A stretch of DNA of 64,000 nt from Apostichopus japonicus (taxonomy: Eukaryota > Echinodermata > Holothuroidea > Aspidochirotida > Stichopodidae): positions 30,281,960 to 30,345,959 of the forward strand of contig NC_092563.1 in NCBI RefSeq assembly GCF_037975245.1, read 5' to 3'. How positions within the stretch are numbered: the first letter of the stretch is position 1; the number at the start of each line of letters is the position of its first letter. Below, in pieces: positions 22,317-44,599 of the stretch. The translations under genes and the position numbers were made by a program. The notes under the pieces are model-generated. The model made no database searches and had not been told where the DNA came from. It worked only from the letters and a program-made list of their open reading frames with translations.

Positions 22317-22520
22317 TTAGACTGCCACATCAGTCCGGTTTCTCCCACCACCTCTTCTTCTTCTGGACTGTTCTCTCTTATCCTTGAGTCGCCTACTCCT
22401 CCTCACAGTCTTGAAGATATCATCTTCATCCGAACCATCCTCATCCTCGCTAATATCCGACATATCAGAATCATAGTAGACATTCTCTTTATACTCCCAC
22501 AGAATGTGTCGTTCATCCCA
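22317..22520 (-). CDS. DCAF11: DCAF11 coding exon 14 (stop codon)
   Basis: Acceptor cctcaatatag, 67 codons and TAA at 22317-22319. It encodes WDERHILWEYKENVYYDSD, completing the last blade, then an acidic segment (SDISEDEDGSDEDD) and a basic tail rich in RR and GGG. The vertebrate tail is different, so this lineage has its own disordered C-terminus. Confidence 0.9.
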   Translation of the reverse strand, partial: WDERHILWEYKENVYYDSDMSDISEDEDGSDEDDIFKTVRRSRRLKDKREQSRRRRGGGRNRTDVAV

Positions 22521-25500
22521 CTATATTGAGGAAGTAGAACAAACATGACATCAGTCTTGTTGTCAAAGCAAGCATTAAGTCCAAGACATGATTCAAACAA
22601 AACAAACATATGGACTGAGAAAACAATATTTATTTTATCCTGGAATGTTACAAGCAACTTTTCCAAGTTGAAAATAAAAAAGTTAACTCATGACAATGCC
22701 AGCCAATCAAAACAACATTAATGACTCAGCTAAGTGTGTTGATGGAAAATTAACAAGTTTGCTAGGATTGCTTGTCAACTTTGAAAGATTTCTATGGGTG
22801 GGTGACATTGTGTGTATATGTGAGTGTTAATTAACACGAAAACATTGGTAAAATAAGAACTTCAGGACAGTACAAATATCAGCAACTAGAAGAATTTATT
22901 ATGTTCTTAGAAAGGGGAAATGAAGCAAACAGTGGTAAAAAAATGAATATCACAATAAGAATATCAATAGGTTCAAGATGTTTTATCTCCAGATGACATT
23001 GTCTTGCTTAATGAGTAGGAAATTGGCTTGTGAACAATTGAAGAGGTACTAATATCTACAGTCATTTCTTTGTTTCAGACAATGATAAGACCCAAACCAT
23101 CTCAATACTCGTATCAACAGTTTGAACAGAATGTGCCTTTGCAACTTATTTTATTTACAACACATGTAAGAAATCCCAACACTACCCAAAAAGTGCCTGA
23201 TTTTAGGAATTTGTCTAAAAAAGTTATTTTGAAATGCATCCCACTTAGATTCTACTTGTGAAAGACAGTGACATCCAGCTACAGTTGATGTCACTTTAAT
23301 CACTGGGGGAAGGGGGTGGGGATACTTGGGAGAGTGTTTGGGGGAAGGGGGTGGGGATACTTGGGAAAGTGTGAGGCTCTTGAAAGTATTGATTTTCATG
23401 AGTCATAAAAACTAAGGAAATTTTCGACTTTGATAAAAAAGTGTGCTACTCACCCCTGAGCTTATGATCTTGTTTTCATATGGATGCCATGATACGTCTC
23501 GTACACAGCTGCCATGGCCTTCACTTAACGTCCTAACCACCTGTCCAGTTAGTGCATCATAAACTAGGAAATAACAACCAAACATAAATGAAACTTTTGG
23601 CTTGATAGGTTAATATAGTGTGTAAAGCACAATACTAAGTGTATTCATTGGATGGAATCTTATTCTTGGCCAAAGCTGACTCAAACATTTTATTTTCCTT
23701 TGTAGTTTCACATCAGTCTTTTGTTGAGCCTAATGGGATGTCTACTGTGAAAAAAATTATTCTGAGCAGGACATGTTTGGGGGAGAAGATACTCCATTTG
23801 TAATTTAATCTGTGACTGTAGTTACAAAATTCATTTTTAAAGGTTGCACTGCTATCTGTGCAGGTTGAATTTCTTTATCTCTCAAATTAAAAAAAATTAC
23901 CCTTTAAAGAGCAGAGCAACACTTGCTATGAAAACAAGACTTTTCATGTCTCAAATAACAAGTTTATATTTTATTAAAAAGGTTGTAGAATGTCATTCAA
24001 GTGTGCTTCTGTTTTTTTTGTATGAGATAAACAGAATTGCTTTGGTTAAGCTATTAGAATGCTGAAACAAATGTTAACATTAATGTTTACAGTAGGTCTG
24101 CACTGCAGAGTACGTATTTTATGATGTGCAGATGCTGTAATTCCTGATTTAAAGGAAATTTTATACCTTGTGAACAAAAAAATGCTATCATTGCATAACA
24201 GGCCTACAATATTTATATCTAAACAAACTTCAAATTAAATACACAGGTTTGTTGCCATGCATCCCTTCATTTTATACTTTTCTTTCTTCTCAGGGATACT
24301 AACAGGCAAGAACACTGAATAACATTACCTGAACACAGTACTAGGACACTGAATAACATTACCTGAACACAGTACTAGGACACTGAATAACATAACCTGA
24401 ACACAGTACTAGGACACTGAATAACATTACCTGAACACAGTACTAGGACACTGAATAACATTACCTGAACACAGTACTAGGACACTGAATAACATTACCT
24501 GAACACAGTACTAGGACACTGAATAACATTACCTGAACACAGTACTAGGACACTGAATAACATTACCTGAACACAGTACTAGGACACTGAATAACATTAC
24601 CTGAACACAGTACTAGGACACTGAATAACATTACCTGAACACAGTACTAGGACACTGAATAACATTACCTGAACACAGTACTAGGACACTGAATAACATT
24701 ACCTGAACACAGTACTAATGCAGGAAAAATGCAGGTTTTCTCTTATAAAATACTATGGTTTCCTGTGTATACATACTGCTACACGTCATTGCACTTGTGT
24801 AACTAGTTGCTTACTTGTAGTAATATCAGAAGCTACCAGTACTTGTACTAATTTCAGTACCTACCAGTACTTGTAGTAGCTACCAGTACTTGTACTAATT
24901 TCAGTACCTACCGGTACTTGAAGTAATGCAGTACCTACCAGACCTTGTAGTTATTACAGTACCTACCAGTACTTGTAGTAATATCGGTACCTAACAGTAC
25001 TTGTAATATTTGCAGTATGTACCAGTACTTGTAGTAATTGCAGTATGTACCAGTACTTGTAGTAATTTCAGTACCTACCAGTACTTGTAGTAATTGCAGT
25101 ACCTACCAGTACTTGTAGTATTTGCAGTACCTACCAGTACTTGTAGTAATTGCAGTACCTACCAGTACTTGTAGTAATTTCAGTACCTACCAGTACTTGT
25201 AGTAATTTCGGTACCAACCAGTACTTGTAGTAATTTCGGTACCTACCAGTACTTGTAGTAATTTCGGTACCTACCAGTACTTGTAGTAATTTCGGTACCT
25301 ACCAGTACTTGTAGTAATTTCGGTACCTACCAGTACTTGTAGTAATTTCGGTACCTACCAGTACTTGTAGTAATTTCGGTACCAACCAGTACTTGTAGTA
25401 ATTTCGGTACCTACCAGTACTTGTAGTAATTTCGGTACCTACCAGTACTTGTAGTAACTGCAGTACCTACCAGTACTTGTAGTAATTTTAGTACCTACCC

Positions 25501-28500
25501 GTACTTGTTGTAAGTGCAGCACCTACCAGTATTGAAGTAATTTCAATACCTACCAGTACTTGTAGTAATTTCAGTACTTACCAGTACTTGTAGTAATTGC
25601 AGTACCTACCAGTACTTGTAGTAATTGCACTTACCTACCAGTATTTGTAATAATTTCAGTACCTACCAGTACTTGTAGTAATTTCAGTACCTACCAGTAC
25701 TTGTAGTAATTTCAGTACCTACCAGTACCTGTAGTAATTTCAGTACCTACCAGTACTTGTAGTAATTTCGGTACCTACCAGTACTTGTAGTAATTTCAGT
25801 ACCTACCAGTACTTGTAGTAATTGCACTTACCTACCAGTATTTGTAATAATTTCAGTACCTACCAGTACTTGTAGTAATTGCACTTACCTACCAGTACTT
25901 GTAGTAATTTCAGTACCTACCAGTACTTGGCTCAAAGCATTTGCCCTCTATCATGTGCAGTTTAAGAATTATAAAACAGAAATCCAAAGGAAGAATAAAA
26001 CTTACTGATAACTTTGCCAGTGGCACAAGCTGAATATATGTAGTTCTGAAGAAGGACAAAATATTAAAGTAGAATCAGCAGAAATTAGAAATAATAAATT
26101 TTATAAAGAAACATTTGGTTATATGATTTTAACATTATTGTTAATGCAAACAAAACAATAAAGCCTATTCACTGGATCACAAAGACAAAATTAGGTGACT
26201 TTTCATTGTTGGTATTAGTAGAGGACACCTGTTGTAAAGCTTAACAATGGGTATTGTGAAAAAAAAAAACACATTTATTTTAAAGGGTTGTCCTTGTTTG
26301 TAGGAGAATCTGTTGAATTGGTACTTTTAAATGAGTACATCAAAATGTAAGGCTGCATGTGTGATTAAATTTTCTGCAGGCTTCATCAATAATACAACTG
26401 CCTCTTCATCAATTTATTTAAATTTTAATCACCTGATCTGTGGTAAACTTTGGAGAGAAGCGACATCTGAGTAATGTATGCAACACACCGTGACCCCGGT
26501 AAGTCATTAGGGAAGTATCACCTTTAACAAGTATCCTCCTACGAGCTGAACATAAAAATAAAAACAACATTTAAGTACGGTGGGCAACACAACTTTACCT
26601 TGGTAAGTCATTAGGGAAGTATCACCTTTATCAACTTAACTTTCAACTTAACCAAGTAACTTAACCAACCCTCAACTTAACCAAGTATGAACTTAACCTT
26701 GGTAAGTCATTGATAAGAGTGGCAAATGCAAATCTGAACATTGGTGAATAAGACATTGCTTAATAGATTACAACCTTTATGTGAAATCATTTTGTCACCA
26801 ATACCAACACCATGCAGTATTATTATGCAAGAGACACACTTTTCTATAGAAGATTGACACAATCATTCACCAACAGACACAGTTCAGAATACCAATGTTA
26901 TAGAACCCTGGTATTCAGAGTTTTCTGATTGGTGACGTAAATCTTCACCATCATCATCTTGGCGACCCTCCGGTAGTAGATATTGTGACCAGGGGAAGGG
27001 GTCCACGTGTACATCAACTTGGCGACCCTCCAGTAGTAGATATTGTGACCAGGGGAAGGGGTCTACGGGTACATCAACTTGGCGACCCTCCGGTAGTAGA
27101 TATTGTGACCAGGGGAAGGGGTCTACGGGTACATCAACTTGGCGACCCTCCGGTAGTAGATATTGTGACCAGGGGAAGGGGTCTACGGGTACATCAACTT
27201 GGCGACCCTCCGGTAGTAGATATTGTGACACGGGGAAGGGGTCTACGGGTACATCAACTTGGCGACCCTCCGGTAGTAGATATTGTGACCAGGGGAAGGG
27301 GTCTAGAGGTACATCAACTTGGCGACCCTCCGGTAGTAGATATTGTGACCAGGGGAAGGGGTCTACGGGTACATCAACTTGGCAACCCTCCGGTAGTAGA
27401 TATTGTGACCAGGGGAAAGGTGTTATGGGTAAGAGGTATCCACCTACTCTGTTGATGGGAGCTACGTTACAAGTGGTGTTATATTTAGCAACTTTTGAAC
27501 TTGAAGATTTCTTCTTCTTTTTCAGAAATTATTTGAATTCTTTAGCTAACCTTGAAACAAAAAAATATTTGCAACTCAAGACAACTTTGAATACCAAGGT
27601 TAAAGAAATAAAGAGGGATTTACAACCAAAGAGGTCATAATATATTCATTCAGGCCTACAAATGCTACAAGTTCTTGTTCTGGTTCTTGCTTGTATGTCT
27701 AAATATGATAACAACTTTACCACCATCTTCAAAGTTACTATTTGCCCTAGGTTTACAGTTTCGTGAACTAATTCATGTTCTACGTTACATCTTTCAAAAC
27801 CTTCAAAGGAAGGACACCATTGTTACCTATCTGAGTGAGAATATGACTTACACCTCCTGGGAGCCCTTTGCCACCTGTAGTCCCATTGTTACCTATCTGA
27901 GTGAGTATCTATGACTTCCACCTCCTGGGAGCCCTTTGCCACCTGCAGTCCCATTGTTACCTATCTGAGTGAGTATATGACTTACACCTCCTAGGAGCCC
28001 TTTGCCACCTGTAGTCCCATTGTTACCTATCTGAGTGAGTATCTATGACTTACACCTCCTAGGAGCCCTTTGCCACCTGTAGTCCCATTGTTACCTATCT
28101 GAGTGAGTATCTATGACTTACACCTCCCAGGAGCCCTTTGCCACCTGTAGTCCCATTGTTACCTATCTGAGTGAGTATCTATGACTTACACCTCCTAGGA
28201 GCCCTTTGCCACCTGTAGTCCCATTGTTACCTATCTGAGTGAGTATATGACTTACACCTCCTGGGAGCCCTTTGCCACCTGTAGTCCCATTGTTACCTAC
28301 CTGAGTGAGTATCTATGACTTACACCTCCTAGGAGCCCTTTGCCACCTGTAGTCCCATTGTTACCTATCTGAGTGAGTATATGACTTACACCTCCTGGGA
28401 GCCCTTTGCCACCTGTAGTCCCATTCTTGCTGGGCCACTGCCCTCCTGGCATTCTCCACAGCATTCTCAGAGGAGAAACATCTCATATCCCAGAGTTTGA

Positions 28501-31500
28501 TTGATTGATCCTTAGAGTTACTGATCAAGTGGCGTGTATCACCCTGTAAATTAATTGAAATATGGCATTTAAACATATGTGGGATGGAAAAGTTACAGCT
28601 TTTCTGGTGCCTGAAGCTAAAATTGCAGAAACATTTGGGGTAGCTTGAGTTTCTTCGTTTGGCATAGTTACCAAAATTTTGTCACGAAATGCTACAGAAT
28701 AGTCAGGTACTGCATCCCAAATGAAAAGCACTTTAAGTCTTTGTCTCCAATCGTTTGTTCATTTGACAAGTATAGAGATTCATATGCTGTCCCTTTCGCC
28801 TCGCCACCAAAGTATGTGCGAAAATGGTGGTTCTTGATTGCTAAGGTTACAACGCTTGTACGTGACTCAATGAATAAATTAGGTCATAATTCCAAGTTGA
28901 TGCTATGAAATGTTTCCCCTCACTCCAAACTGCAATGAACCAATTACTTAACCTTAATAATAATGATGACACTAAACCTGATTAGAGTCTAACCATGTTA
29001 ATGGATGAGTCTTCACACTACCTATTACCACTTTCACTTTTTACCAATCAGAGTTGTTCTACCACCAAGGGTTCCAATTAATTTTACAACAAGGGGCAGA
29101 AAACATGATTTGTTGGAGCAAACATGCAGACATCATCAATATCTTCATTTACCTTTATACTCTTAATAATTAAGGTTGACTGATTGTTCAACAAAGCCCA
29201 AAGATTTAATGATTTGTGATGTCATTAAAGTGCAAGATTGTGGACCTATTTTTATTCACAGGCCAGATTAAAATATATCACCGTTCAGATTTCCCTCTCA
29301 TGTTACCTATTGATAAACTCCTTGTAAACACAAATTCTTATAGACATACTCTCCATATGACACCATACAGACCCCCCTATGACGTACCTTTGACTGGCAC
29401 TACACAACATATTCAAATTCCTAAAGACATGCTCTCCATATGACACCATACAGACCCCCCTATGACGTACCTTTGACTGGCACTACACAGCATATTCAAA
29501 TTCCTAAAGACATGCTCTCCATATGACACCATACAGACCCCCCCCCCCCTATGACGTACCTTTGACTGGCACTACACGACATATTCGAATTCTTAAAGAC
29601 ATGCTCTTCATATTACACCATACAGACCCCCCTATGACGTACCTTTGACTGGCACTACACGACATATTCGAATTCTTAAAGATATGCTCTTCATATTACA
29701 CCATACAGACCCCCCTATGACGTACCTTTGACTGGCACTACACGACATATTCGAATTCTTAAAGATATGCTCTTCATATTACACCATACAGACCCCCCTA
29801 TGACGTGCCTTTGTATCAATGAATGTGATACCATCACTGTGTCCTGCCAGAGTCCCAACTGGAGATGAATTTGATTCACTCAGCATCCGGCGATCCCAGA
29901 CCTTGCACAAGCCGTCATCACCGCCGGAGAACAAAATCTGAGACGAAGAGTCTGCAAAACAGACTGCGTTTACATCATCCTCATGTGCATCGACCTGGAA
30001 AAATGAAAACCAAAAGAGCCCACCAATTCAGTTATTTACAACAGTCCTCTGTGTAAGTTTGTCAATTTTACCAGATGTATATCCTGCACTATTAATATAT
30101 GATAACTACTGATACAGCCTAAGACACCGTCAAACATTTACTTTCACTGACTCACTTCTATTACAAGACTTTTTTGGGGCTGGGACAAATTTTCATTATC
30201 GTAGTAATAATTACAAAATTTAAAGAGGTTATGAAATGAAAAATTTTCATGTCTTAGAATGGTTTATCTACATTACTACAACACCATCTATGCACAACTT
30301 TCCGTAAATACAGCTTCAAACGCCAGAAATTCGCTGTCAAAGTATTCCCCAGAGACCTCTCGAGCTGCCACTCGTAAAAAAAAGCAAAGCTGCCCACCGC
30401 AGTTCATCTGACGTCATCAAAGGAACCATTTCAGCCAAAGCCGACTCCCCGCTGTTTACCGATACGGCGTTACACAGTTTACTACATGTAACCACAACAC
30501 TCTTCTCATCAATTGAAAATGTCTTCTCCCGAATCTTCCGATTCAGAGGAAATCTCTCAGGACATTCGTAAGCTTTGACGAAAATTATTTTCTTGAGGAA
30601 GATGAGGAGGAAATAGTTTTCAAGGGTGATGAAGATAATATCGGTGTTTTTCCCTATCAATTGAGCCCCTTGCAGAAGAATTGTAAAACGATCCCGGTGG
30701 CCGAGACGCGTCGCTGCCGATCGAAGTCCCCGAGCAGAACGGTTGGACGACCCTGAACCGAAACTGGTCGGTTGAGCATAAACAAAACCACCCTTGTTAA
30801 GACCATCATATGATTTAAATTATCTCGAATGTCGATGATCCTGCTACTTAACTTCGTAGCGAAGCTTCTAGAATTTTGTGTCTTACAGTGCAAGGAAAAT
30901 GTGACATTCTGTTCATTGCAACCCTATAGTACTAGTAGTGGTAACATGGGGTCTAGACCTAATAGACGTTGTATAACAGGCTAGCCAGTGTAATTGTATC
31001 ATCCAACTGTTACGTAAAATCACAACACAACGCCAGATTTACCACAAAAGAAAACTTGCAGATCTAGTATTGATTGTTCTTAAACCAACTGGCTTTAAAA
31101 TTTGTGCGAAATATTAGGTACCTGTAACCATAAAAAAAATCGTCATTTGCTGTATCAAGGAGGCCTAGGCTATGGTCATAACAAGTAATTTGGCAACAGT
31201 ATAGGCCTACAGGCACTCGTAATGTTGTGTATGTGTAGTGTTTTGAGCAAGTCGTGTTCAAATTCTTCGATTTTGTCATCTTTTGGAAAAGCTTGCAGTA
31301 GAAATCCGTCTTTACTTGTGGTGGAGCAACCTGATACCACATATCGGCTCGGCATTTTTAACTTTACGAGATAAATTTACGTAAAAACAAACTCCAAACA
31401 CCAAATCTCAATTACTACGGAGCAATGCAACAGTGTAATGGTGTGTGTTCTCAGACGTTTAAGAGTGTAAACATAGCGTCTCGGAAGTGAGCTGAGTTCC

Positions 31501-34500
31501 TCGACTGACGTCACGCCGCGTTACCGTAAATACAACAATTTTTAGAAAGTTTTTATTACCCTCGAATTTTTGATCGTTTATTCCTCGAGAATGCAAGCTT
31601 CGTTTGACACAAATTGGGTATCATTGGAAAGCTACGAGTGTACAGAATACGATGATAAAGAATTTTTTTTTCATTTCATAACCTCTTTAAGGTTTTACAG
31701 GAACTCACCATCAATGTTCTTTCCCCCTTTTCCCTGTCATATATGTAAAGATTTCCATCGTTTGCACTGTCGAGAAGAGATGCACAAAGTAAAACAAGAT
31801 CGGATTGACATGTAAAACAAACACTGAGGATCCTTCACAGAACCTGCACCATAGATTGAATGATACCGCCTGCACCATAGATTGAATGATATCGCCTGCA
31901 CCATAGATTGAATGATATTGCCTGCACCATAGATTGAATGATATTGCCTGCACCATAGATTGAATGATATCGCCTGCACCATAGATTGAATGATATCGCC
32001 TGCACCATAAATTGAATGATATCGTCTGCACCATAGATTGAAGGATATCACCTGCACCATAGATTGAATGATATTGCCTGCACCATAGATGGAAGGATAT
32101 TGCCTGCACCATAGATTGAATGATATCGCCTGCACCATAGATTGATTGAAATTGCCTGCACCATAGATTGAATGATATCGCCTGCACCATAGACTGAATG
32201 ATATCGCCTGCACCATAGATTGAATGGTATCGCCTGCCGGATAGCAGTATGGTATACAAACTAAACATAAACTAAACACAAACTTAATATAAACTAAACA
32301 AGCAGACAAGCTGCCATAACCTACCCTGCGAGGATTTCTTTATTGTCACTGGAAAACTGAATGGAGAAAGCACAAAACTGGGCTTGGCTGGGATTCAGAT
32401 CTAAGGCACTGTGAGTTTCATAGTCTCCATGGATATTGCAAATGTGTACTGTGGAAGAAAATAAACATACATCAGAGTCAACTTAGATTCTTAATGAAGG
32501 AGCAGACATGTCTTGGTACACAGGAAGGATTATTCTATATGTAACAATATGTACATTAAAGGCATCACTTTCCAATTAATGTGCCGAGACCAAGTCACAT
32601 GACTTATGAGTAGCAAGGTCACATAGCCTACATTAACTGGTTCATTATTGCCAAAAACAAGACAATGAACCACTGTCTGTACTCATTATTTAGAACACTG
32701 TTTTGGAATGATGATCAGCTCTGTTTAGGATAATTCTATCTGAAGTTTAAAAAGAATGTAAAGGAGTATACTCAAATCAATGAGCAATGCCAAGGCAAAT
32801 AGGCAAAGCTTAGAATGCAGTTTACAACAGTAAAAGTGACCCAAAAAAATGATAAGTTTGACAGCTTACTGTTTTCTGACCAGCTTGAATATATCAGGTA
32901 ACATCCATCAGGACTGTAAATTTAAAGGAAGAAAATAAACAAATAAACACAACAGCAAAACCAAAGTTATTAAAAAGGAAAATTCATCTGAGAGTTTTCA
33001 AGAATTCACTACCGACAACAATCTAACGAGACAAGACCTTTTCTTGGTCAGCATTTGAACAGATCATATCCAAAATGTCTCTCATGAATAACTTTTTGAA
33101 GGAAACTTTAGTCTTTTTCTTTAAAGAATCAGTTAATTTCAAACCACTTTTGTCCATAGTTAATACACAAAGTCACTGAAACCGACGATGTTTTTTGCCA
33201 TAAGTGTTAATTTGGTATCATCTACCCATGTGCTAAAATTGTAAGATCTTCCTTCAAAATGGACAGAAGCCCTAAATTAACAGATGCATACTGTCAGCTC
33301 TAATAAACTGTGGGTTGAGACAGGACAAAGTTAAAATCCCCAAAAGTGTAAAGAAGAGTTCAGATCAAATTTTATTATAGTTGCTAAAGAAGTTTATAAA
33401 ATACCTATTAATTGTATTAGTTAGATATATGTATTAGTTATAGAAGGGAGACAATTATTAAAGGTACAGAAGTAGATTACACATATTCACCTGAATGCAG
33501 TATCCAGCACACTCCAACCGACATCTTGAGCCTTGATTGCCCTGAACAGTTTGAACTGTCCCTTGGAAACGTCAAAGAGACGTAAATACTGATCCTGGCA
33601 TGCCGAGAGAAAGACGTTGCCATCCTGTGAATAGGTACCGCAGAACAACTTGGACGGAAACCTATCCAGCTCAGTACCATTATTTGGAAGGAAGCTGTGG
33701 AAAGATACAAGCAGATTGCAGTGAATCTGCAGGACGGCTTACTATTTGACCCTAGTCTTGGTCTACAGCAGCTCAAAGCATATTCAAGGAATTAATTACA
33801 TACATTAAAATATTTCCCTAATGAGGTATATGGCAGAACAAAAGGACATCTTGAGGCTGTGGATAGTCACCTGCCAAGAATGAGATGCCTCTTATCACTG
33901 CATCTAATCAACTTCAAGGGGCATCCTATATAGTAAGATGCCAAGTCAATTTAATATTAATGGCTGCTAATATTATCAACTAAAACAGTACCTTGGTGTG
34001 ACAGTTGATTGATCATTCATGTATGGTGTTTTATCTGCACTCTTTATACAAAGCTTGCATAGCATCATAAAACAATCTATGAGCAAATTTAACAGGTTAC
34101 ACCGGTTTGACAGGTAACTGTTAGTTATTCTCGCACAATCTTTACTACAGTACCGTTAGTCTCATAGTTGTAATCTTTTTCATGTTATTTTGCATGTTAA
34201 TACTGACCTTGCTGTGAACATTGATTTCTCATGCATATATGGTCTTCCCATTTCGATTAAGCCACCATTAGACTGTCTCTGTTGATGATAAACAGAACAA
34301 ACTCTGTACTGTGATATCAGATAACATGTTTTAATATCCTCAATATGGCATCTTTCTACATCTACAGTACTGTAGGTGGGCAACAGAAGGTTTAACTAAT
34401 ATCTACTGGTCACTATCAGTACAACATATGGTATCTTGGCTTGACTTAAAGGCATCTAATGTTTGATAGCAAAGCTCATACTTGATGTATTTAATAAACC

Positions 34501-37500
34501 TTGTTATTGGTATATCTGAAAGCTCTTGATGTAACAAGAAAAGACTGTAGGATTATTCTATTGACTATTATGAATATGTATTATGCAGATTTTAATTTTT
34601 CGTCTTAGTTTCTAAGATTCAGAGTAATGACTCTGCAGACTGCAACAGTACTGTACAGTAGGTGTGGGATCTTTGGTACAAGGCAGTTTATAGCTACTCA
34701 CAATATATAATCACTCTATACATTGTACTCAAATCAATGACCACATAAACACAACATACGGTATCAATGTAATCATTTCTATATGTTTGTAAGCCATCAC
34801 AAATGTCTTACTGAGAATGTACTGACATAAAAGCAACTTTTAAACAACTCTACCATGTCCTTCTAGCTATAATAACAATAATAATCTTAGATATAAATAA
34901 GTTACCAGAGGTTCTTATGATGTATTCCAACAATACATTTAGATATGGGTTTATGCTAACCTTTCTTAGAAGGTGATTGACAGATGTTGGTTTTGGTATT
35001 GTGCCATAGTGAGGCTGTCCTGCCTTGAACAGCATACTCTGTTTGAACTGGCTTTGCTGTTAAAAAGAAATCAAATGAATACATAAATATTTCAATGGTT
35101 TTTGTACTTTTACAGTTGATTTTTACTAAGTACTGTAAGTGGCCTTACATTAAAGAAAAGTATCTTTACATAAATACTGTAGAAATATAACACAAGGTAT
35201 ATTAACCAGTGATTGTGTAGGCTAACCTGTCAACAGTGGGTTTCATGATGGACCTATTTGAGGAACTGTATTAATATCGGATATTTCAGTCTCATATTTC
35301 TTATGAACTAACTTTAAATTTCCCAGTCAGTTTCCATTGTTCATTTATTGAATTAATATGAAGTGCTATACAAATAATCAGATTCTAAAAATGAAAACAA
35401 AAATTGTCTGTTCTTAAAAAGCAGCTTTCAAAGTTAAAGAAGAACACCAAATGTGTTAACCTTTTTGAGTTGAACACTTTGATATCGTTGCAAATCCAGG
35501 GGAAGGGGACAAGGAGAAGCAGGTATTACACATTAAAAGGGCACTGCAACAATTAACCATCTATAGTGTTGGTCATAAGAAATCTTGCATGAGAATAAAA
35601 AGTGGATGGACACGGTTCTCCCAAGTTATAAATTCACCAATTGCACAATGGACACGTCCACCCATAATGCAACATGTTTATACTGTTATCCTTCCTTGTG
35701 TCCACTTTTTGCTACTGTACATCACATCCTCTTACTATACATCCCAGGCCTCGACAAATATTTGTAACAGCACTCGCCAATTGGCGAGCACGACTAAAAA
35801 GCTACTGGCCAAATTGCTTTATATAAACTAAGGTTAGGCAGATATATGGCACTACATAATGCAGATTGGAAATGATATTTCTATATGAAATTTTATCTTC
35901 TTTCACCAAAAGAAAGTGATGAACATCGTAACAACATGTCACAGAATCATTAATATACAGCTACAGAACTGTATTGTGGATTTTATTTTCTGCACATCAG
36001 CTCTAAAGGGGTCTTGTGTCATGCACTTGTGGATATTGATAGCACAAAACTCAGAATATAGTGGTTACAACTTGTTAAAAAGTTTCATACAAAATATTCT
36101 ATCAATTTAGTTTTCAGTTCAGAGGGGATTTCCACCTTTTTATTTTTAGTTGTCTACTTGGGCTGCTACTGTAGTACTACTCTACTGTTTAGGGGTTGCC
36201 TGGGCATAAATAAGCAGTCTAAGTCATCACATGATGTTCAACAAACTTTTTTAATTTGTTTCTGAGAAAGGAACATATGAACACAGTGTGTATGAATGCT
36301 TTTAGGAACACATCACATAGCCTACTTTGTAAGATCAATCCATTCCCTGTACATAGTTAATAGCAATATAATGCTTTTGCTGTGTGTTTAAAATGGGGGA
36401 TTGCTCCCTACCTGTTAAGTTTGTGAACAACCTCTGTACATGCAAAATTCAGGTACATAATGCACGTTTTAGATAGCATAGTTAATTCCCATTAAGATTT
36501 GTCATTAACACAACTAAAACTTGCTTCAAGTTCACCAAGGGACTGATTTTATCATAATCTAAAATGTTTACATAAATAGTCTTGCTAATATTGGGGGTTG
36601 ACAGTCCACGAGTCACTCACCAAAATGTAGTGCTTAGTTTGTTTTCTAAGAGCCAAAGCTAAAATTCTACTTGATAATGTGGAGTTGGCTACTATTATTG
36701 TCAAGGCCTGGTAAATCCCCCTCCTATTATACTCCTGTCTGGATTTTAACCTAACCCAGATACTAAAAAGAGAGTTAAATGTAAATTAATTGATTTTTCC
36801 CCTTTATACTATAATGGTTGTTTGACAAACAGTCCAAACACAAGCAGTTTGTCCACTACAAAACTAGCTTGTCCTGTGTTCACTTCACTGTGCCTTTGAA
36901 GTTTGAAACATGGATATATTATGGTGTAATACAGTACTTCCATGACTGCACATGCTAATGCAAGTTCAATAAAAAGTCGGTATTTTTCAAGCAATCACAT
37001 ACAACAACATGAGGTACAGATCTGGGAACCGCCCCTCCTCCAACCACCAAAGATTGATTTCAAATCTGTGATTTCTAAACCTTTCCTAAATGCTGCCTGC
37101 ATGTTACTCACAATCTTATCGCCCCCCCCCCCCCCCCCCGAAGATTTATTTCAAATCTGTGATTTCAAAACCTTTCCTAAATACTGCCTGCAGTAGGGTA
37201 CTCACATCAATCTTACTCGTGTCTGGAGTTACATCAGCTGAAAGAAAGTGCAAAAACGGTTAAACCACATTGTGTAAAAGAGACAACAACTGTGCTCATC
37301 AGAACACCCCGTTATAATGTACTGTTTGGGTCATGGAATGCACCTATGACAAGCAACCAGCCACTTTAAGTTCCAGGACTCAGTCAGTGTATTTATGAGA
37401 AAGACTGATCATTTAAATCATAATTCTTGATAATATTCGAGGTCTTCTTGAAGATCCTCGTTCAGTTACTATATAGAACATGTACACATGCAACCATGCA

Positions 37501-40500
37501 CACTGTACAGTAGTTCCAACCTTCCATTGACACTGTGATAAATTCACTAATTTGGGAAATAAATCCCTAACATGCTGATCAGTGAGAAAGAAAAAAGAGT
37601 CAGTTACTTTCAGGACAACACTGAATGTTAAAATCATCATCTTCATCAGCTAAGTCATCATGGAAATCTCTGTCAACCTGAAATAATCGGACTTGACCAC
37701 TACAAAAGAGAAAAAGGGAGAAGGAGGATCCTCAGCAATTCTTCTTAGAACATTTTAAAGCATTCAAGCTACCATACTACTGGATCTCCAATATTAATGA
37801 TATTATTATTATACAACATTTCAACATAAACTTAAAGCAGCTGGTTGGGTTTGCAACGTAGAGTCTCACGTTACCTGTGCGAGATTTCACCTTTTCTAGC
37901 AGAATGTAATGGCATCACAATAGAATGACTAACACATGTAAGCAGTCAGGGCTATCTGTTTCATTAAAAAATATTGTATTATCAAAACTTGGTACAGACC
38001 CTACCACATGCATACTGCAGATTAGTATTCTGTACTGTAGGTCAAGCCTAAACTGATTTGTGTATTACAATGGGAGGGAAGTTGTTTAATTTTGTCATTA
38101 ACTGAATACCTGTTACTGTAAGTGCACCTTATCAGGGAAGGGGAAACATACAGTATCAGCTTTAAAACCAGAAATGGAATAATCATAAAGTGACAATTTA
38201 GTCATGGAACACAATCACCTGCTTTAAACAATATTAACAGCAAATGAGCTAGATACAATAACATACTGTAAATATGTACACCAATTTACCATTGATGCAC
38301 TGTTGAAAGACGTTCTTCAATAAAAGTTTGTTGGGTGACAAAAAGTTTACCAAGTGGTGTAAGAATTATGTATCTGAGTTGTAAGAAACAATCAGAAATA
38401 CTTTGAAGGACTTGTTCAACAGTTGAGAACTCTGACTCTAATAGAACTTGTAACCTTTAGTACTATGATCAAACTACACAAGGTTCTAGGCTTTGCTACA
38501 GCTTCAACAGTTTAGAACCCATCCCTATAGCTTGCTCAGCTCTCTCTCCATTTCTATAAAAAAAAAATTACAACTTTTCAACCCTTGTTCGGAACTGTAG
38601 TCCAAGAAAACAGAAAGTACTGCACACATTTGCATGGCATGAGCTGCTAAGTAGAGTATTGACTTTATTTCTAAACCTACAGTAGTTGCTAACTTCAATC
38701 AAGCACACAATATATTTGCACACTGAACAAACTGTATCCTATGGATACTGAATCTAATTATAGTACAGATACAGAAGATAATACTATGAGCTGAGTCATG
38801 GTCCATCCACCAGTTTAACCAAAGGCCTTGAGTGATAATGCAGGATAAAAGCAAACTACAGTTTTATTCAAACCTGATAAACATGGAGAAAATCAATCTT
38901 GGGTCTAGATAAAGATTAGTGTGTGTCACCAACTTACCTACAATAAATACATGTTTGGTAATGATTTAGGGGACAAAATTGACAGAACAATAACTTAAAT
39001 CCTGAAGACTGTCATCAAAGTAGCTGAAATTCATTCAGGGTACTTTATGAATGAGTGACCCTTTGAAGAATACAACTGTATTTTTCATCGGGTTGTATCT
39101 ACAGCCAACATGTACATCCTTCTAAGCAAGCCATGCTTTACTTAATTTTCAAGGGGATAAAAATATAGTTCAAATTTTGTGTACATCACAGTTTCGAAGG
39201 AGCTCTGAATTTTGTCTAGAGCTTATAAAATATTTATGCTTCTTGTGTATAAAAATGGCTTGATAAATCTTTGCACTTGTACAGCAATGTGACTACTCTG
39301 CATAGCATTTTGCATTGCAATACTGAATAAATTATTCTCTGTTCCAAAGGGGTAACTTTAGCATGACACTATGCTTTTGCTCAGCCATGTTAAATGTATT
39401 AGGGACACGGTATGTCTCTTATCAGCCCAACCAACATAAGGATATGAAATCAAAGCCAGATTTTAAACCCCAATGGATCAATCATTATACCTAAGTTTGC
39501 AAGTTACAATATTACCAGTAATCTCTACCTCTGTGCTAATTTTGAATCTCTTTCAGCCTAAACAAAGTCAGATAACTGTACTGTATGTGTAAGACTGGCC
39601 AGCAGAAAAGTTTATTATATTTTCAAAATTGTTGCTAAGTCCTTGTAAGAGTTCTTTGTCCAGCTTCCACTAAAGCATTGTAGACAATCTGTAAGTCACA
39701 CTGTTGTGTCACTCAGATTGTAACATATCGCTAAGTATGAGAACAATTTTCATGTAACCCATAGCCAATGAGAGTTCATTTCTTGATGAAGGGAATGTCT
39801 CCACTAATTGCAGATATTCAACTTCCATGAATACCCTTAAGTAGGTTGGGCTAAGGAGACACACATGTGTGTGCTATGTTCTATAATAATTTAGCATATA
39901 CAGTATGTTTCTATAAGAAGCCTAACAAACTGCAAATCTGCAAACAAATTGTTTTGTCAGTTTCTCTACATTCAGTACTTCCAGTACTAAATGAAGTGCT
40001 GCTCCCATTTTCAGGTATTGCTTGCATGTTCCAGGATAAAATAGATTGATATCAAATCTTGCTTGGGCACTGCACGTGGGAAAAGTTGTCACCTATGATT
40101 CAAAAGAAACTTATCATTTTTTTCGGAAAACTACTTACAGTAGGCCTACATAGAAAGTCAATGATTGTGCGGAACATGGACAATCTTACGTAATGTCCTG
40201 TGGGTAACGTCAACATAGGGATAAATGCACTTAGCTTGGTGTGATTTGATTATCACCATCAAAGATTTAACCCATTATCATACAGGTCTGTTAACTCTCC
40301 CGGTTTTACCGGGAGACTCCCGGTTTTAACCCGAATCTCCCGGCCTCCCGGTTTCATATTCTATTCTCCCGGTTTTTCTATGTTCTACACTTGCGACATT
40401 TCTGAAAATAGCCAACAATTTGTCCTATGCTTAGTAATTCCCCACAGTAACGCTGAACAGGAAAGGCTATTTAGTGTAGTTCGCAAGAACAAGACAGACA

Positions 40501-41220
40501 GTCGGTCAAGTCTCAAGCTTGATGGGACTCTATCTAGCATACTAGCCATGAAGTCACAGTACCCAGAGTCCACTGTTCCCTGTTTCAAATGGAAGCCTAC
40601 TAAAGAAACCCTGTAGAAAGCGAAGCGAGCTGCTGTAAACTACAACAAGAAACACTGATTGGATGATTCTCTCACTGTATTGCATAAGTAGACTATACTT
40701 ATTTAGGAGTATTTATATTATTTCAGTTGAAAATTACCAACCTCCTTATTTTCCCCTTGTTCTCCCTATTTTTTGGCCCTGAAAAATGTTATTCTCCCTA
40801 TTTTGAGGTCAAACAGGTTGACAGGGCTGCATTATGCAAGTACTATAGCCGCTACACAATAACTAAATGTGACTGTATGCTTGCGGATGTACAGTATGGT
40901 TTGCATCCATGATCCCAGGGTAAAATACAAATCTGTTAGTGTTACTAAGTGTTAGGAAAGGCAAATTTGTTCGCTCCTTCCACATCATCAATGCGCAGAT
41001 GTACAGTTCCTGGACTCTGGAGTAACATTAAGACATGGTTGAAGTATGACTAAATGTTACCTTGTGTGGGCACAGTGACTGCTACTGCTAGGATTACTTA
41101 CTTGCGGAGTAAGAATGAAACAAGTGCTGCATAATCCACTTCTTCATCTCCTTCAGACAGTCCTTCTCTTTCTTCCGACAGTCCTTCTCTTTCTCCACTT
41201 GTAGTGTTCCTGCTACCCAT
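22317..41220 (-). CDS. DCAF11: DCAF11 (WDR23), WD40 substrate receptor of CUL4-DDB1 ubiquitin ligase, spliced
   Basis: Fourteen minus-strand coding exons assemble into about 525 codons that follow vertebrate DCAF11 (546 residues in human, from memory) from the MGSRN start to a charged tail. WD40 blades are recognisable in exons 5-13. Exons 9 and 10 carry the DDB1-docking WDxR motifs (VWDRR and LWDMR). The protein is known as a CRL4 substrate receptor acting on NRF2/SKN-1-type factors and SLBP. Joined exons in order: 41102-41220, 37608-37699, 37206-37237, 34961-35056, 33491-33694, 32870-32913, 32325-32448, 31709-31766, 29809-29994, 28390-28543, 26433-26545, 26006-26045, 23454-23563, 22317-22520. 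About 20 residues expected between exons 3 and 4 were not found (phase 0 on both sides), and the exon 4/5 junction has a phase mismatch. Introns hold six minisatellites and a DNA transposon. Confidence 0.93.
23454..23563 (-). CDS. DCAF11: DCAF11 coding exon 13
   Basis: Acceptor ttatttcctag, donor GTGAGT, phase 1 to 0. It encodes IYDALTGQVVRTLSEGHGS then CVRDVSWHPYENKIISSG; CVRDVSWHP is identical to vertebrates. Confidence 0.92.
24312..24717. repeat. Minisatellite, 34-bp unit, 12 copies
   Basis: The unit is acactgaataacattacctg aacacagtactagg, almost without variation, indicating recent expansion. It is in the same intron as the 28-bp array, 90 bp away. Confidence 0.95.
24806..25929. repeat. 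Minisatellite, 28-bp unit, ~40 copies
   Basis: The unit is agtaatttcggtacctacca gtacttgt, with tttcggt, tttcagt and ttgcagt variants. The central copies (25205-25440) are the most uniform, the edges most diverged, as expected of an array expanding from the middle. It is in the intron between DCAF11 exons 12 and 13. Confidence 0.95.
26006..26045 (-). CDS. DCAF11: DCAF11 coding exon 12 (40 bp)
   Basis: Acceptor tccttcttcag, donor GTAAGT, phase 0 to 1. It encodes NYIYSACATGKVI, matching FIYSGCSTGKVVV. Confidence 0.88.
26433..26545 (-). CDS. DCAF11: DCAF11 coding exon 11
   Basis: Acceptor tttatgttcag, donor GTGATT, 113 bp, phase 1 to 0. It encodes RRRILVKGDTSLMTYRGHG then VLHTLLRCRFSPKFTTDQ, matching the GDSSLMTYRGHGVLHTLIRCRFSP block. 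Confidence 0.93.
26571..26716 (-). pseudogene. Copied fragments of DCAF11 exon 11 in the preceding intron
   Basis: Positions 26579-26632 repeat the exon 11 stretch gcaacacaccgtgaccccgg taagtcattagggaagtatc accttt, with 28 identical bases and looser similarity beyond. A shorter piece (ccttggtaagtcattgataa) follows at 26698. They lack splice sites in the right place. Confidence 0.8.
26961..27420. repeat. Minisatellite, 60-bp unit, ~7.7 copies
   Basis: The unit is ggcgaccctccggtagtaga tattgtgaccaggggaaggg gtctacgggtacatcaactt, nearly identical in all copies. Sixty is a multiple of three, so both strands stay open: plus reads GDPPVVDIVTRGRGLRVHQL and minus reads SQYLLPEGRQVDVPVDPFPW. It lies in the intron between DCAF11 exons 10 and 11. 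Confidence 0.95.
27819..28425. repeat. Minisatellite, 66-69-bp unit, 9 copies, containing the end of exon 10 and its donor
   Basis: The unit runs cattgttacctatctgagtg agtatctatgacttacacct cctaggagccctttgccacc tgtagtccc. Its last ~36 bases equal the 3' end of DCAF11 exon 10, and the following acttac is the exon's GTAAGT donor in reverse. Eight copies lie downstream of the true junction in the transcript; seven keep an intact donor and one (27911-27920) has gacttcc. Most changes in the exon-derived part (cctaggagg for cctgggagg) would be synonymous. Confidence 0.95.
28390..28543 (-). CDS. DCAF11: DCAF11 coding exon 10
   Basis: Acceptor aatttacag, donor GTAAGT, 154 bp, phase 0 to 1. It encodes GDTRHLISNSKDQSIKLWD, MRCFSSENAVENARRAVAQQ then EWDYRWQRAPRR. 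LISNSKDQ(S/T)IKLWD and the QQ(E/N)WDYRWQ block are nearly identical to vertebrate DCAF11. The last 36 bp are copied in the adjoining minisatellite. Confidence 0.93.
29338..29808. repeat. Minisatellite, ~83-bp unit, 5-6 copies, each with a copy of the exon 9 donor
   Basis: The unit includes caccatacagaccccccta tgacgtacctttg and aaagacatgctctccatat. Starts of the gacgtac motif are at 29381, 29464, 29553, 29636 and 29719, with the true exon boundary version gacgtgc at 29803. Homology to exon 9 itself is only the last few bases (cctttg). Each intronic copy reads CAAAG then GTACGT in the sense of the gene. Confidence 0.93.
29809..29994 (-). CDS. DCAF11: DCAF11 coding exon 9, with GC 5' splice site
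   Basis: A 186-bp exon, phase 0 to 0, acceptor tttttccag. It encodes VDAHEDDVNAVCFADSSSQI, LFSGGDDGLCKVWDRRMLSE and so on to GHSDGITFIDTK. The WDRR is a DDB1-binding WDxR box. Homology and phase place the end at ACAAAG followed by GCACGT, a GC-type donor. Tandem copies of the following sequence in the intron carry GTACGT at that point. Confidence 0.92.
30224..31686. mobile_element. piggyBac-like DNA element, 1463 bp, TTAA target duplication
   Basis: The left end AGAGGTTATGAAATGAAAAA is repeated inverted at the right end (ttttttcatttcataacctct). TTAA stands at both borders (30220-30223 and 31687-31690), the target site of piggyBac-type transposases. No transposase is visible, so it is non-autonomous. 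It sits in the DCAF11 intron after exon 8. Assignment to piggyBac rests on TTAA alone; the ends do not begin with CCC as in classic members. Confidence 0.75.
30519..30756 (+). pseudogene. Broken reading frame inside the TTAA element (acidic N-terminus, P2X7-domain-like)
   Basis: ATG at 30519 opens MSSPESSDSEEISQDIRKL and a stop. In the next frame from 30577 it continues DENYFLEEDEEEIVFKGDED then NIGVFPYQLSPLQKNCK up to a TGA at 30754. An acidic Ser/Glu lead followed by G-x-x-PYxxEP/SP is reminiscent of the invertebrate multicopy proteins carrying a P2X7 intracellular-type domain. That link is inference. The frame is shifted once and truncated. Confidence 0.4.
31709..31766 (-). CDS. DCAF11: DCAF11 coding exon 8 (58 bp)
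   Basis: Acceptor ttctcgacag, donor GTGAGT, phase 2 to 0. It encodes GANDGNLYIYDREKGERTLM, matching GGANDGCLYVFDREQNRRTL. It lies between a 26-bp minisatellite (31843 on) and a piggyBac-like element whose end is only 18 bases past the donor. Confidence 0.92.
31843..32237. repeat. Minisatellite, 26-bp unit, 15 copies
   Basis: The unit is cctgcaccatagattgaatg atatcg with cg/tg and single-base variants. It lies between DCAF11 exons 8 and 7. Minus-strand frames through it read as HSIYGAGDIIQSMVQAISFN repeats. Confidence 0.95.
32325..32448 (-). CDS. DCAF11: DCAF11 coding exon 7
   Basis: Acceptor cttccacag, donor GTAGGT, phase 1 to 2. It encodes IHICNIHGDYETHSALDLNP then SQAQFCAFSIQFSSDNKEIL, aligning throughout with the vertebrate blade. 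Confidence 0.9.
32870..32913 (-). CDS. DCAF11: DCAF11 coding exon 6 (44 bp)
   Basis: Acceptor aaatttacag, donor GTAAGC, phase 2 to 1. It encodes SPDGCYLIYSSWSEN, matching TPDGNHFLYSSWSDY. Confidence 0.88.
33491..33694 (-). CDS. DCAF11: DCAF11 coding exon 5
   Basis: It encodes FLPNNGTELDRFPSKLFCG, TYSQDGNVFLSACQDQYLR and LFDVSKGQFKLFRAIKAQD, then VGWSVLDTAF; the ACQDQ, IKA and DVGWSVLD blocks are nearly identical to vertebrates. Donor GTGAAT. The strong acceptor (tctttccacag) requires a phase-2 partner, which exon 4 does not supply. A weaker acceptor at 33727 (ctgcag) would extend the exon by 32 bp and restore phase 0. Which one is used, or whether a microexon lies between, needs transcript data. 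Confidence 0.85.
33695..34960. other. DCAF11 intron between exons 5 and 4
   Basis: AT-rich, no repeat array. It may hide a microexon needed to reconcile the exon 4/5 phases; none was recognised. Confidence 0.4.
34961..35056 (-). CDS. DCAF11: DCAF11 coding exon 4
   Basis: Acceptor cttttaacag, donor GTTAGC, 96 bp, phase 0 to 0. It encodes QSQFKQSMLFKAGQPHYGT then IPKPTSVNHLLRK, aligning with the segment preceding the first blade in vertebrate DCAF11. Its phase-0 end does not fit the best acceptor of exon 5, so the junction is unresolved. Confidence 0.75.
35057..37048. other. DCAF11 intron between exons 4 and 3
   Basis: AT-rich. It contains a perfect 16-bp palindrome CTCGCCAATTGGCGAG at 35773-35788. 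The ~20-residue block expected between exons 3 and 4 was sought here and not found. A weak candidate near 36617-36690 has a GTGAGT donor but the wrong reading frame. Confidence 0.4.
37049..37217. repeat. Two-copy tandem duplication spanning the exon 3 / intron junction, split by a C18 tract
   Basis: The segment gatttcaaatctgtgatttc ... cctttcctaaatgctgcctgc ... actcacaatctta at 37049-37117 matches 37143-37217, which includes the last bases of exon 3 and its donor. The copies are separated by a run of about 18 C at 37122-37139. The downstream copy keeps AAGATT followed by GTGAGT. Confidence 0.85.
37206..37237 (-). CDS. DCAF11: DCAF11 coding exon 3 (32-bp microexon)
   Basis: Acceptor cactttctttcag, donor GTGAGT, phase 1 to 0. 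It encodes (T)DVTPDTSKID, matching the conserved VDATPDT block. Its 3' end and donor are duplicated 95 bp further on (37049-37121). The following ~20 residues of the family were not located. Confidence 0.8.
37608..37699 (-). CDS. DCAF11: DCAF11 coding exon 2
   Basis: Acceptor ttttgtag, donor GTAACT, 92 bp, phase 2 to 1. It encodes GQVRLFQVDRDFHDDLADED then DDFNIQCCPE. GQVRL is identical to the vertebrate protein, and the acidic stretch replaces a similar acidic region there. Confidence 0.85.
37700..40274. other. DCAF11 first intron, unique AT-rich sequence
   Basis: No exon, element end or tandem array recognised before the hAT remnant at 40283. Confidence 0.45.
40283..40829 (+). mobile_element. 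Deleted hAT element with transposase remnant
   Basis: The left end CAGGTCTGTTAAC and the right end GTTGACAGGGCTG form an imperfect 13-bp inverted repeat. CATTAT flanks both sides as a possible worn 8-bp target duplication. The inside carries a hAT C-terminal dimerisation block (see 40395). The DNA near both ends consists of repeated cccggtttt / ctcccta phrases. It lies in intron 1 of DCAF11. Confidence 0.7.
40395..40616 (+). pseudogene. hAT transposase C-terminal dimerisation fragment
   Basis: The frame reads LVIPHSNAEQERLFSVVRKN then KTDSRSSLKLDGTLSSILAM. The PHSNAExERxFSxVRKxKT motif is the hallmark of the hAT dimerisation domain. The BED finger and the catalytic core are missing, so it is non-functional as a transposase. 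Confidence 0.85.
41102..41220 (-). CDS. DCAF11: DCAF11 coding exon 1 (start codon)
   Basis: The ATG lies at 41218-41220 and the donor is GTAAGT. It encodes MGSRNTTSGEREGLS, a second EREGLSE copy (tandem in-frame duplication), then an acidic segment and the VDYAALVSFLLR helix. It matches the MGSRNSS...DEDVDLAQVLAYLLRR start of vertebrate DCAF11, which fixes the start choice. It exits in phase 2. Confidence 0.88.
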
Positions 41221-43507: not shown

Positions 43508-44599
43508 TCTCCAACTACCAAAATGTTTGGTTTTGATCTACAGTATAAATAATTTCCAACAAATTTGTTTAACCATGGAATTTCACCCATTTAAATCAAT
43601 TCTAACATAATTTTTTGTTCTGTGTGTCTATTTGTAGGCTATATAATTTGTGTGTTTTTGTTTTTTGTTTTTTTTTAACTGCTCAACGTAAGCAGGGAGT
43701 TGGTGATAGCGACGGGTGGCTCAGTACAGTTTCCCCGTACTCTTTGATGTCGACCTTCTAAAGTAGTCTGCTTTGCTATCATGCCAATTGTCCGAAAATA
43801 GTGACCACGCATGGAGATAGTCTAACAAAGAAATTTCACCTTCACCCGTAATTGTTGACCTCCGATATGACCGTCTATATGAGCATAAATCTGTTCAGTA
43901 TATACGATGTGTGCTGAACTATACCTGCAGCATATACTATGCAGGGCTTCACAATGTATGCCTTGCTTGTAAGCAACATTCAGATTGTCGTATCGAACGC
44001 ATGGCTCCAGCTATAAAGACGTCTTCATGTTATTCAAACGTGAATATACAGAGAATAAATAAATAAATCGCTAAACTGAATCAAAGAGTAAACCATATAG
44101 TAAAAGAAAACATCAAACTGTTGTACTTCGGTTAAAGGAGTGCCGTGCGTGAATGTGAGCAGTCAGTGTAAGACTATTTAATTAGAACATCAGACGGACA
44201 AAGGGTATGTTATATATGTATATATGTAAATATATGTATAAATATATATATACGAGAAGCCGTATGTAAACTCATTATAACATATAGGATACATGTCAAC
44301 ATTACGTCATCGGAGGGAATTTGCATCCATATAGTGAAACGATTCAATTTGACCAGGGAGACGAATTTGAGCAACTCTAAGCAATCCGTGTGCAAACTTG
44401 ACGAAATCTCACGATAACAGCTATATTCCATTCTATACCGGACCTTTAAATTCGCTGTATGTGTGTGTTTCTACATGTTTGTGAATTATTTCACTACAAG
44501 AGCAATCGTGACGAACTTGAAAGACTGAAAATAAACAGTTTTAAACAAAACGAAAAACCACGACGAAATAAAAAATAAGCCAAACCGTCGGTTGTTATA
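43508..44599. other. Upstream region of the SLC35G1-like gene
   Basis: AT-rich with short (TA)n at 44210-44255. No coding feature; promoter elements not identifiable with confidence. Confidence 0.4.

What the first reader, a model, noticed from the sequence alone, without database searches (positions are those of the whole stretch)
27819..28543. Minisatellite made from an exon end: nine copies of the DCAF11 exon 10 / intron junction
The 66-69-bp unit carries the last ~36 bases of exon 10 plus its GTAAGT donor and about 30 bases of intron. Seven of the eight extra copies keep the donor. In the pre-mRNA the true 5' splice site is followed by a ladder of identical ones, each with its native exonic context. 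Use of a downstream copy would insert intron sequence; the array could act as a U1 sink or as a source of alternative transcripts.
Basis: partly seen in the sequence, partly recalled or inferred. Interest (0 to 1): 0.82.

Follow-up and report, generated by a model that had tools for sequence, protein, structure and literature searches.

The report
Gene splice site copied into minisatellite
In an animal gene (DCAF11), a short stretch spanning the end of one exon and its splice signal stands nine times in a row, and the exon before it ends in a second such array; this is an uncommon but known kind of repeat that can disturb splicing, and whether the extra signals are used is not known.

Summary
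On the minus strand, 27818-28425 is a nine-unit array of 66 or 68 bp. Unit 1 is the last 36 coding bases of a DCAF11 exon (28390-28543; exon 11 of 15 in my model), its donor GGT|GTAAGT and about 30 intronic bases. Reading phase and a gap-free alignment to human DCAF11 confirm the donor. Eight of nine units keep GTGTAAGT.

Two additions. The preceding exon ends in a second donor-bearing array (83-bp unit, 29331-29813): its own donor is GC (AAG|GCACGT), while five downstream copies carry AAG|GTACGT. And using any of the 7 + 5 downstream donors adds nine residues, then a stop, so the ladders can make only truncated, probably NMD-targeted, transcripts.

Precedents exist: human ABCA7 (25-bp VNTR starting at the exon-18 donor), CBS (31-bp, 24 exonic + 7 intronic) and IFI6. 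I rate this a new member of a known kind. It probably arose by tandem duplication at a 5-bp microhomology and is tolerated because the first donor mostly wins. Donor conservation and RNA folding show no sign of selected function. U1 sink and regulated use are untested. The GC-versus-five-GT exon is the best natural test.

The parts
28390..28543 (-). DCAF11 coding exon 11 (of 15 in this model); its last 36 nt are the exonic part of unit 1
27818..28425 (-). Nine-unit minisatellite (66/68-bp units) spanning the exon 11 / intron 11 junction
28384..28392 (-). True 5' splice site GGT|GTAAGT (first intron base 28389)
   Evidence: reading phase; ungapped human alignment
27846..28326 (-). Seven intact extra donors (first intron base 28323, 28255, 28189, 28121, 28053, 27985, 27851) and one broken (GGAAGT, 27919)
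27817..27821 (-). AATGG at the distal array end, matching AATGG at the exonic start of unit 1 (28421-28425): probable microhomology of the founding duplication
   Evidence: flanks printed; sequence
29809..29994 (-). DCAF11 coding exon 10; by phase its donor is GC: AAG|GCACGT
29331..29813 (-). Second donor-bearing array, 83-bp units (one of 89) starting at 29812, 29729, 29646, 29563, 29474, 29391; units 2-6 carry AAG|GTACGT
26433..26545 (-). DCAF11 exon 12, acceptor partner of the array-bearing intron
22317..41220 (-). DCAF11 gene model, 15 coding exons, open frame of 548 aa

Best explanation
A tandem duplication across the exon 11 / intron 11 junction of DCAF11, probably primed by a 5-bp AATGG shared by exon and intron, founded an array that later grew by unequal exchange and stays homogenised together with the coding copy (unit 1 is identical to unit 3). 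Shown: the anatomy, the reading phase, the repeated donors, the stop after nine residues for every downstream donor, and the second donor array at exon 10. Inferred: the first donor gives nearly all productive mRNA because it defines the shortest exon (154 nt against 220-692 nt); downstream copies give a minor leak of stop-containing, NMD-prone transcripts, as in ABCA7; if array length has an effect it is a quantitative loss of DCAF11 output. Most likely a tolerated, mildly costly, passenger-like splice-site minisatellite.
For: Array and units. Phase and homology fix the donor. Eight identical donors, one broken; every downstream donor ends in the same nine residues and a stop. AATGG at both ends. 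Unit 1 equals unit 3 over all 66 bases, and units 4 and 6 are identical. No donor-specific conservation: the six donor bases vary at 1 position, against 3 of 36 exonic and 2 substitutions plus one 2-bp indel in the remaining intronic bases. No unusual RNA fold in the three stretches tried (z 0.69, 0.11, 0.23). Human precedent with measured RNA: ABCA7.
Against: No RNA evidence of any kind was available. Four of the gene's six arrays carry a donor-like site in sense and none in antisense (0.61 expected, P 0.001; post hoc, and two of the four hold true donors by construction). Two donor-spanning arrays in one gene have P 0.010-0.018 under random placement. Both hint at something beyond accident. 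The exon-10 GC donor scores well below its five GT copies (2.8 against 9.43 on a recalled matrix), which strains 'the first donor simply wins'. The exon-11 donor itself is not strong on that matrix (6.13).
Confidence: 0.66

Rival explanations
1. Regulated poison-donor ladder: the extra donors (7 at exon 11, 5 at exon 10) are used at substantial, tissue-dependent levels and copy number sets DCAF11 output through NMD.
For: Identical donors with near-native exonic context; every use gives a stop. Two adjacent exons have the same design. Better-scoring GT copies sit behind a GC donor.
Against: No donor-specific conservation. In ABCA7 the donor one unit downstream gave only 2 +/- 1% of transcripts and its share did not change with VNTR length (PMC5954066). 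No RNA data.
Confidence: 0.13
2. Length-dependent exon skipping, as in ABCA7: a long array next to the junction promotes skipping of exon 12 (113 nt) or exon 11 (154 nt), both frameshifting.
For: In ABCA7 skipping of the next exon rose with VNTR length. A TERT intron-6 VNTR promotes skipping of exons 7 and 8, by RNA pairing (PMC3948165, abstract).
Against: At 0.6 kb this array is the size of the ABCA7 reference allele (592 bp), far below the alleles of several kb in which skipping was highest; no unusual folding.
Confidence: 0.12
3. U1 sink: the ladder binds U1 snRNP and changes transcription elongation, premature polyadenylation or the local splicing factor supply without being spliced.
For: Eight perfect GTAAGT hexamers within 0.6 kb.
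Against: Eight sites are trivial against cellular U1 abundance (general knowledge); no conservation of donors. Not testable here.
Confidence: 0.03
4. Assembly artefact: the copy number, or the GC at exon 10, does not exist in the animal.
For: Arrays can be mis-assembled; unit 1 and unit 2 of the 83-bp array differ by a single base, and unit 4 has a run of 12 G where the others have 6.
Against: Units differ from each other, so this is no simple stutter. If the genome is the sea cucumber HiFi assembly that it resembles in size (671.58 Mb, 35 contigs; 671.64 Mb, 34 scaffolds), reads of mean 14.7 kb at 64x span a 0.6-kb array easily.
Confidence: 0.05

Closest known systems
ABCA7 intron-18 25-bp VNTR (human; PMC5954066, passages read)
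   Same: Array begins at the true donor of an exon (its first two bases are that donor's GT); use of a donor one unit downstream is documented as a minor isoform that shifts the frame and is subject to NMD.
   Different: Unit of 25 bp that starts at the GT, so intronic; more copies (23.7 in the reference) and polymorphic; disease-linked. Here array 1 units carry 36 coding bases. The 83-bp array at exon 10, with about 5 exonic bases per unit, is the nearer match.
CBS 31-bp VNTR, c.1444_1467+7(16_21) (human; PMC2630376, passages read; Lievers 2001 not held, recalled)
   Same: By its name each unit is 24 exonic + 7 intronic bases, repeated 16-21 times: exon end plus donor. The same anatomy as array 1.
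   Different: Shorter unit, more copies, known length alleles; here 66/68 bp, nine copies, alleles unknown.
CBS 844_845ins68 (human; PMC2630376, one passage read)
   Same: A 68-bp duplication of an intron 7 / exon 8 junction doubles a splice site; the passage says the machinery strongly favours one copy, so normal mRNA is made.
   [quoted passage not shown] by position they should be acceptors).
IFI6 / 6-16 minisatellite (human; Turri et al. 1995, only its title seen in reference lists; details recalled)
   Different: By recall its unit is about 12 bp and the alternative donors add in-frame residues; here every copy leads to a stop.
Intron gain by tandem genomic duplication (PMC3443670, passages read)
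   Same: Tandem duplication multiplies splice-site sequence inside a gene.
   Different: That model duplicates an exonic AGGT so that two new sites flank a new intron; here an existing exon-intron junction is duplicated into an existing intron.

Membership tests
Donor-spanning minisatellite/VNTR (ABCA7, CBS, IFI6 kind) | Tandem array whose first unit contains the real 5' splice site of a coding exon | tested here: met
Donor-spanning minisatellite/VNTR (ABCA7, CBS, IFI6 kind) | Further units keep a donor sequence in sense orientation | tested here: met
   7 of 8 extra units in array 1; 5 of 5 extra units in the 83-bp array, whose unit 1 is GC
Donor-spanning minisatellite/VNTR (ABCA7, CBS, IFI6 kind) | Alternative transcripts from downstream donors | not testable with these tools
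Donor-spanning minisatellite/VNTR (ABCA7, CBS, IFI6 kind) | Copy-number polymorphism between individuals | not testable with these tools
   one assembly only; units 1 and 3 being identical fits recent turnover
Intron gain by tandem genomic duplication | Duplication of exonic AGGT creating a new intron between the copies | tested here: not met
   the unit spans an existing junction; the intron 11 phase agrees with a single ordinary intron
DCAF11 (DDB1- and CUL4-associated factor 11) | Near full-length similarity to human DCAF11 and WD40 repeats | tested here: met
   PDB 9ptu, E 8.3e-175 over query 18-506 of 548; PF00400 E 4.2e-31

The most novel reading that the evidence does not exclude
DCAF11 in this animal is throttled by several splice-donor ladders. 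Exon 10 has a GC donor backed by five better-scoring GT copies, exon 11 a donor backed by seven identical copies, and the intron after exon 13 a 40-copy array holding 37 of the gene's 53 non-native donor-like sites that score 7.5 or more. All lie in sense, and those at exons 10 and 11 lead to stops if used. Array lengths would then be tunable, heritable rheostats of productive splicing in one gene.
Probability: 0.06. Interest if true: 0.7.

Novelty: new member of a known kind. Interest (0 to 1): 0.38.

Why it matters
It adds what is probably an invertebrate case, twice in adjacent exons of one gene, to a repeat type known from a few human genes. It offers clean natural contrasts on how the spliceosome chooses among repeated 5' splice sites: a ladder of identical donors in near-native exonic context (exon 11), and a GC donor against five better-scoring GT copies with hardly any exonic context (exon 10). 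RNA-seq would answer both directly.

Tried and rejected
First GT of AGGAGGTGTAAGT as the true donor: rejected because joining it to exon 12 gives a stop at the third codon (sequence, exon-12 phase). Exon 10 ending at a GT upstream of its GC: rejected because it would delete residues that align to human DCAF11 without a gap. RNA hairpins hiding the donors: not supported in the three stretches folded. Constraint on the donors: not supported. General enrichment of donor-like sites in minisatellites: 4 of 32 strand-units in the 200-kb sample against 5.35 expected, while the window as a whole gave 5 of 24 against 2.06 expected. Comparison with related species, transcripts and individuals: I had no data for it.

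Limits of the counts. Arrays were filtered to unit at least 15 bp, at least 2.8 copies, non-low-complexity and non-overlapping; the rows dropped were not counted. The script looped over files that mostly do not exist; one search confirmed that the one file held all 20 stretches (200,000 bases) and gave the same 16 arrays. Splice-site scores use a donor frequency matrix recalled from memory, good for ranking only. A first version of the array-unit test crashed and was rerun. One paper search was rejected for its wording and one 'find' for short terms. Two paper searches found nothing. Turri 1995 and Lievers 2001 are not held.

Full report
What is there. The window's minus strand carries DCAF11. 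I placed 15 coding exons between 41220 and 22317; joined, they give an open 548-residue frame. The protein matches human DCAF11 (PDB 9ptu) over residues 18-506 at E 8.3e-175 and has WD40 repeats. The N-terminal exons, where the human alignment is weak or gapped, are less certain, so the exon number (11 here, 10 in the finding) depends on the model. Whether the genome holds a second DCAF11 locus could not be tested (search did not complete).

The array. TRF reports 27817-28425 with period 68 and 9.1 copies. Read on the transcribed strand there are nine units of 66 or 68 bp; after the ninth come the five bases AATGG and then unrelated intron. Unit 1 is the last 36 coding bases of the exon 28390-28543, the donor GTAAGT at 28389, and about 30 intronic bases. 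Two GTs are possible (GAG|GTGTAAGT or GGT|GTAAGT). Seven of the eight extra units keep the same nine donor bases; unit 8 has GTGGAAGT. A query over the region matched once in the own genome (best candidates only).

Origin. AATGG stands both at the exonic start of unit 1 and at the distal array end, as expected if a 5-bp microhomology founded the first duplication (inference). Unit 1 and unit 3 are identical over 66 bases, and units 4 and 6 are identical. The coding end of the exon therefore seems to take part in the array's turnover. Variation shows no special protection of the donor: one of its six positions varies, against three of 36 exonic ones.

The neighbour. The preceding exon (29809-29994) ends where an 83-bp array begins (29331-29813; six units, one with six extra G, the last diverging after about 60 bases). 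By phase and homology its own donor is GC, AAG|GCACGT, while the five other units have AAG|GTACGT. Unit 1 and unit 2 differ only by that base.

Consequences. The seven intact downstream donors of array 1 add 66, 134, 200, 268, 336, 404 or 538 nt, and all give CKSYTHSDR followed by a stop. Each of the five downstream donors at exon 10 gives ARHRGVCMV followed by a stop. The ladders can therefore make only truncated proteins or NMD substrates (NMD is inferred from established rules). Skipping of exon 11 (154 nt) or exon 12 (113 nt) would also shift the frame. One unit and two dimers show no unusual RNA fold.

How surprising is it? The gene has six arrays in 18.9 kb, against 16 arrays in a 200-kb sample of the same contig (Poisson P 0.005; the sample covers only the contig's first 10 Mb). 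With one unit per array placed at random in the gene, at least one spans a donor in 15-20% of trials and at least two in 1.0-1.8%. Four of six arrays carry a donor-like site per unit in sense and none in antisense (0.61 expected, P 0.001). Two of those four contain true donors by construction; for the other four arrays alone, two hits have a chance near 0.04 (my arithmetic from the backgrounds). The sample shows no such excess (4 of 32 strand-units, 5.35 expected). All these tests are post hoc. One donor array is therefore unremarkable in so repeat-rich a gene; two are mildly surprising.

Which animal? The tool names none. Its genome has 671,581,487 bases in 35 contigs. The sea cucumber Apostichopus japonicus assembly of PMC10344927 (abstract and the first of two parts of its Methods read) has 671,643,915 bases in 34 scaffolds, from HiFi reads. 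The figures are close, not equal; the identification is likely but inferred.

Known relatives. ABCA7 intron 18 has a 25-bp VNTR whose first two bases are the exon-18 donor. The donor one unit downstream is used at about 2% and gives a frameshift, while skipping of the next exon rises with VNTR length (PMC5954066, passages). CBS has c.1444_1467+7(16_21), that is 24 exonic + 7 intronic bases repeated, and a separate 68-bp duplication of an intron 7/exon 8 junction in which one copy is strongly favoured (PMC2630376, passages). [quoted passage not shown] These came from five searches of the held library that combined minisatellite or VNTR with splicing terms. One search also listed a paper on repeat-bearing mucins of Schistosoma mansoni (PMC2576457), which I did not open, so another invertebrate case may be there. 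One search with 'echinoderm' listed one paper, on piggyBac transposases, also not opened. The kind is thus known; an invertebrate example in two adjacent exons of one gene I did not see in what I read.

Verdict. The best reading is a recently active, donor-spanning minisatellite in which the first donor does the work and the copies leak at most a minor amount of stop-containing RNA. The exon-10 array, a GC donor followed by five better-scoring GT donors, is the sharper test case and deserves RNA data first.

Noticed in passing
29331-29813 (-), exon 10 end 29809: 83-bp array starting at the exon-10 donor; the native donor is GC, five copies are GT; unit 1 and unit 2 differ only at that base.
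   Followed up: yes
24812-25929 and 24312-24717 (-), intron after exon 13: 28-bp array of 40.2 copies with 37 donor-like sites scoring 7.5 or more in sense, consensus CTG|GTAGGT, and 34-bp array of 11.9 copies with consensus CAG|GTAATG; no such site in antisense, and no exon of this gene matched them.
   Followed up: partly
26602-26630 (-): A 29-nt perfect copy of part of exon 12 (26545-26433) lies in intron 11, ending 57 bp upstream of exon 12: another local duplication of exonic sequence in the same gene.
   Followed up: partly
22317-41220: DCAF11 holds six minisatellites in 18.9 kb, about four times the density of a 200-kb sample from the same contig.
   Followed up: partly
31843-32237 (-) and 26952-27417 (-): Further intronic arrays (26-bp unit with GGTGCAGG, acceptor-like; 60-bp unit in the same intron as array 1).
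   Followed up: no
44579-45688 (+): 369-aa stop-to-stop open frame with EamA transporter domains (PF00892), SLC35G-like by recall.
   Followed up: no
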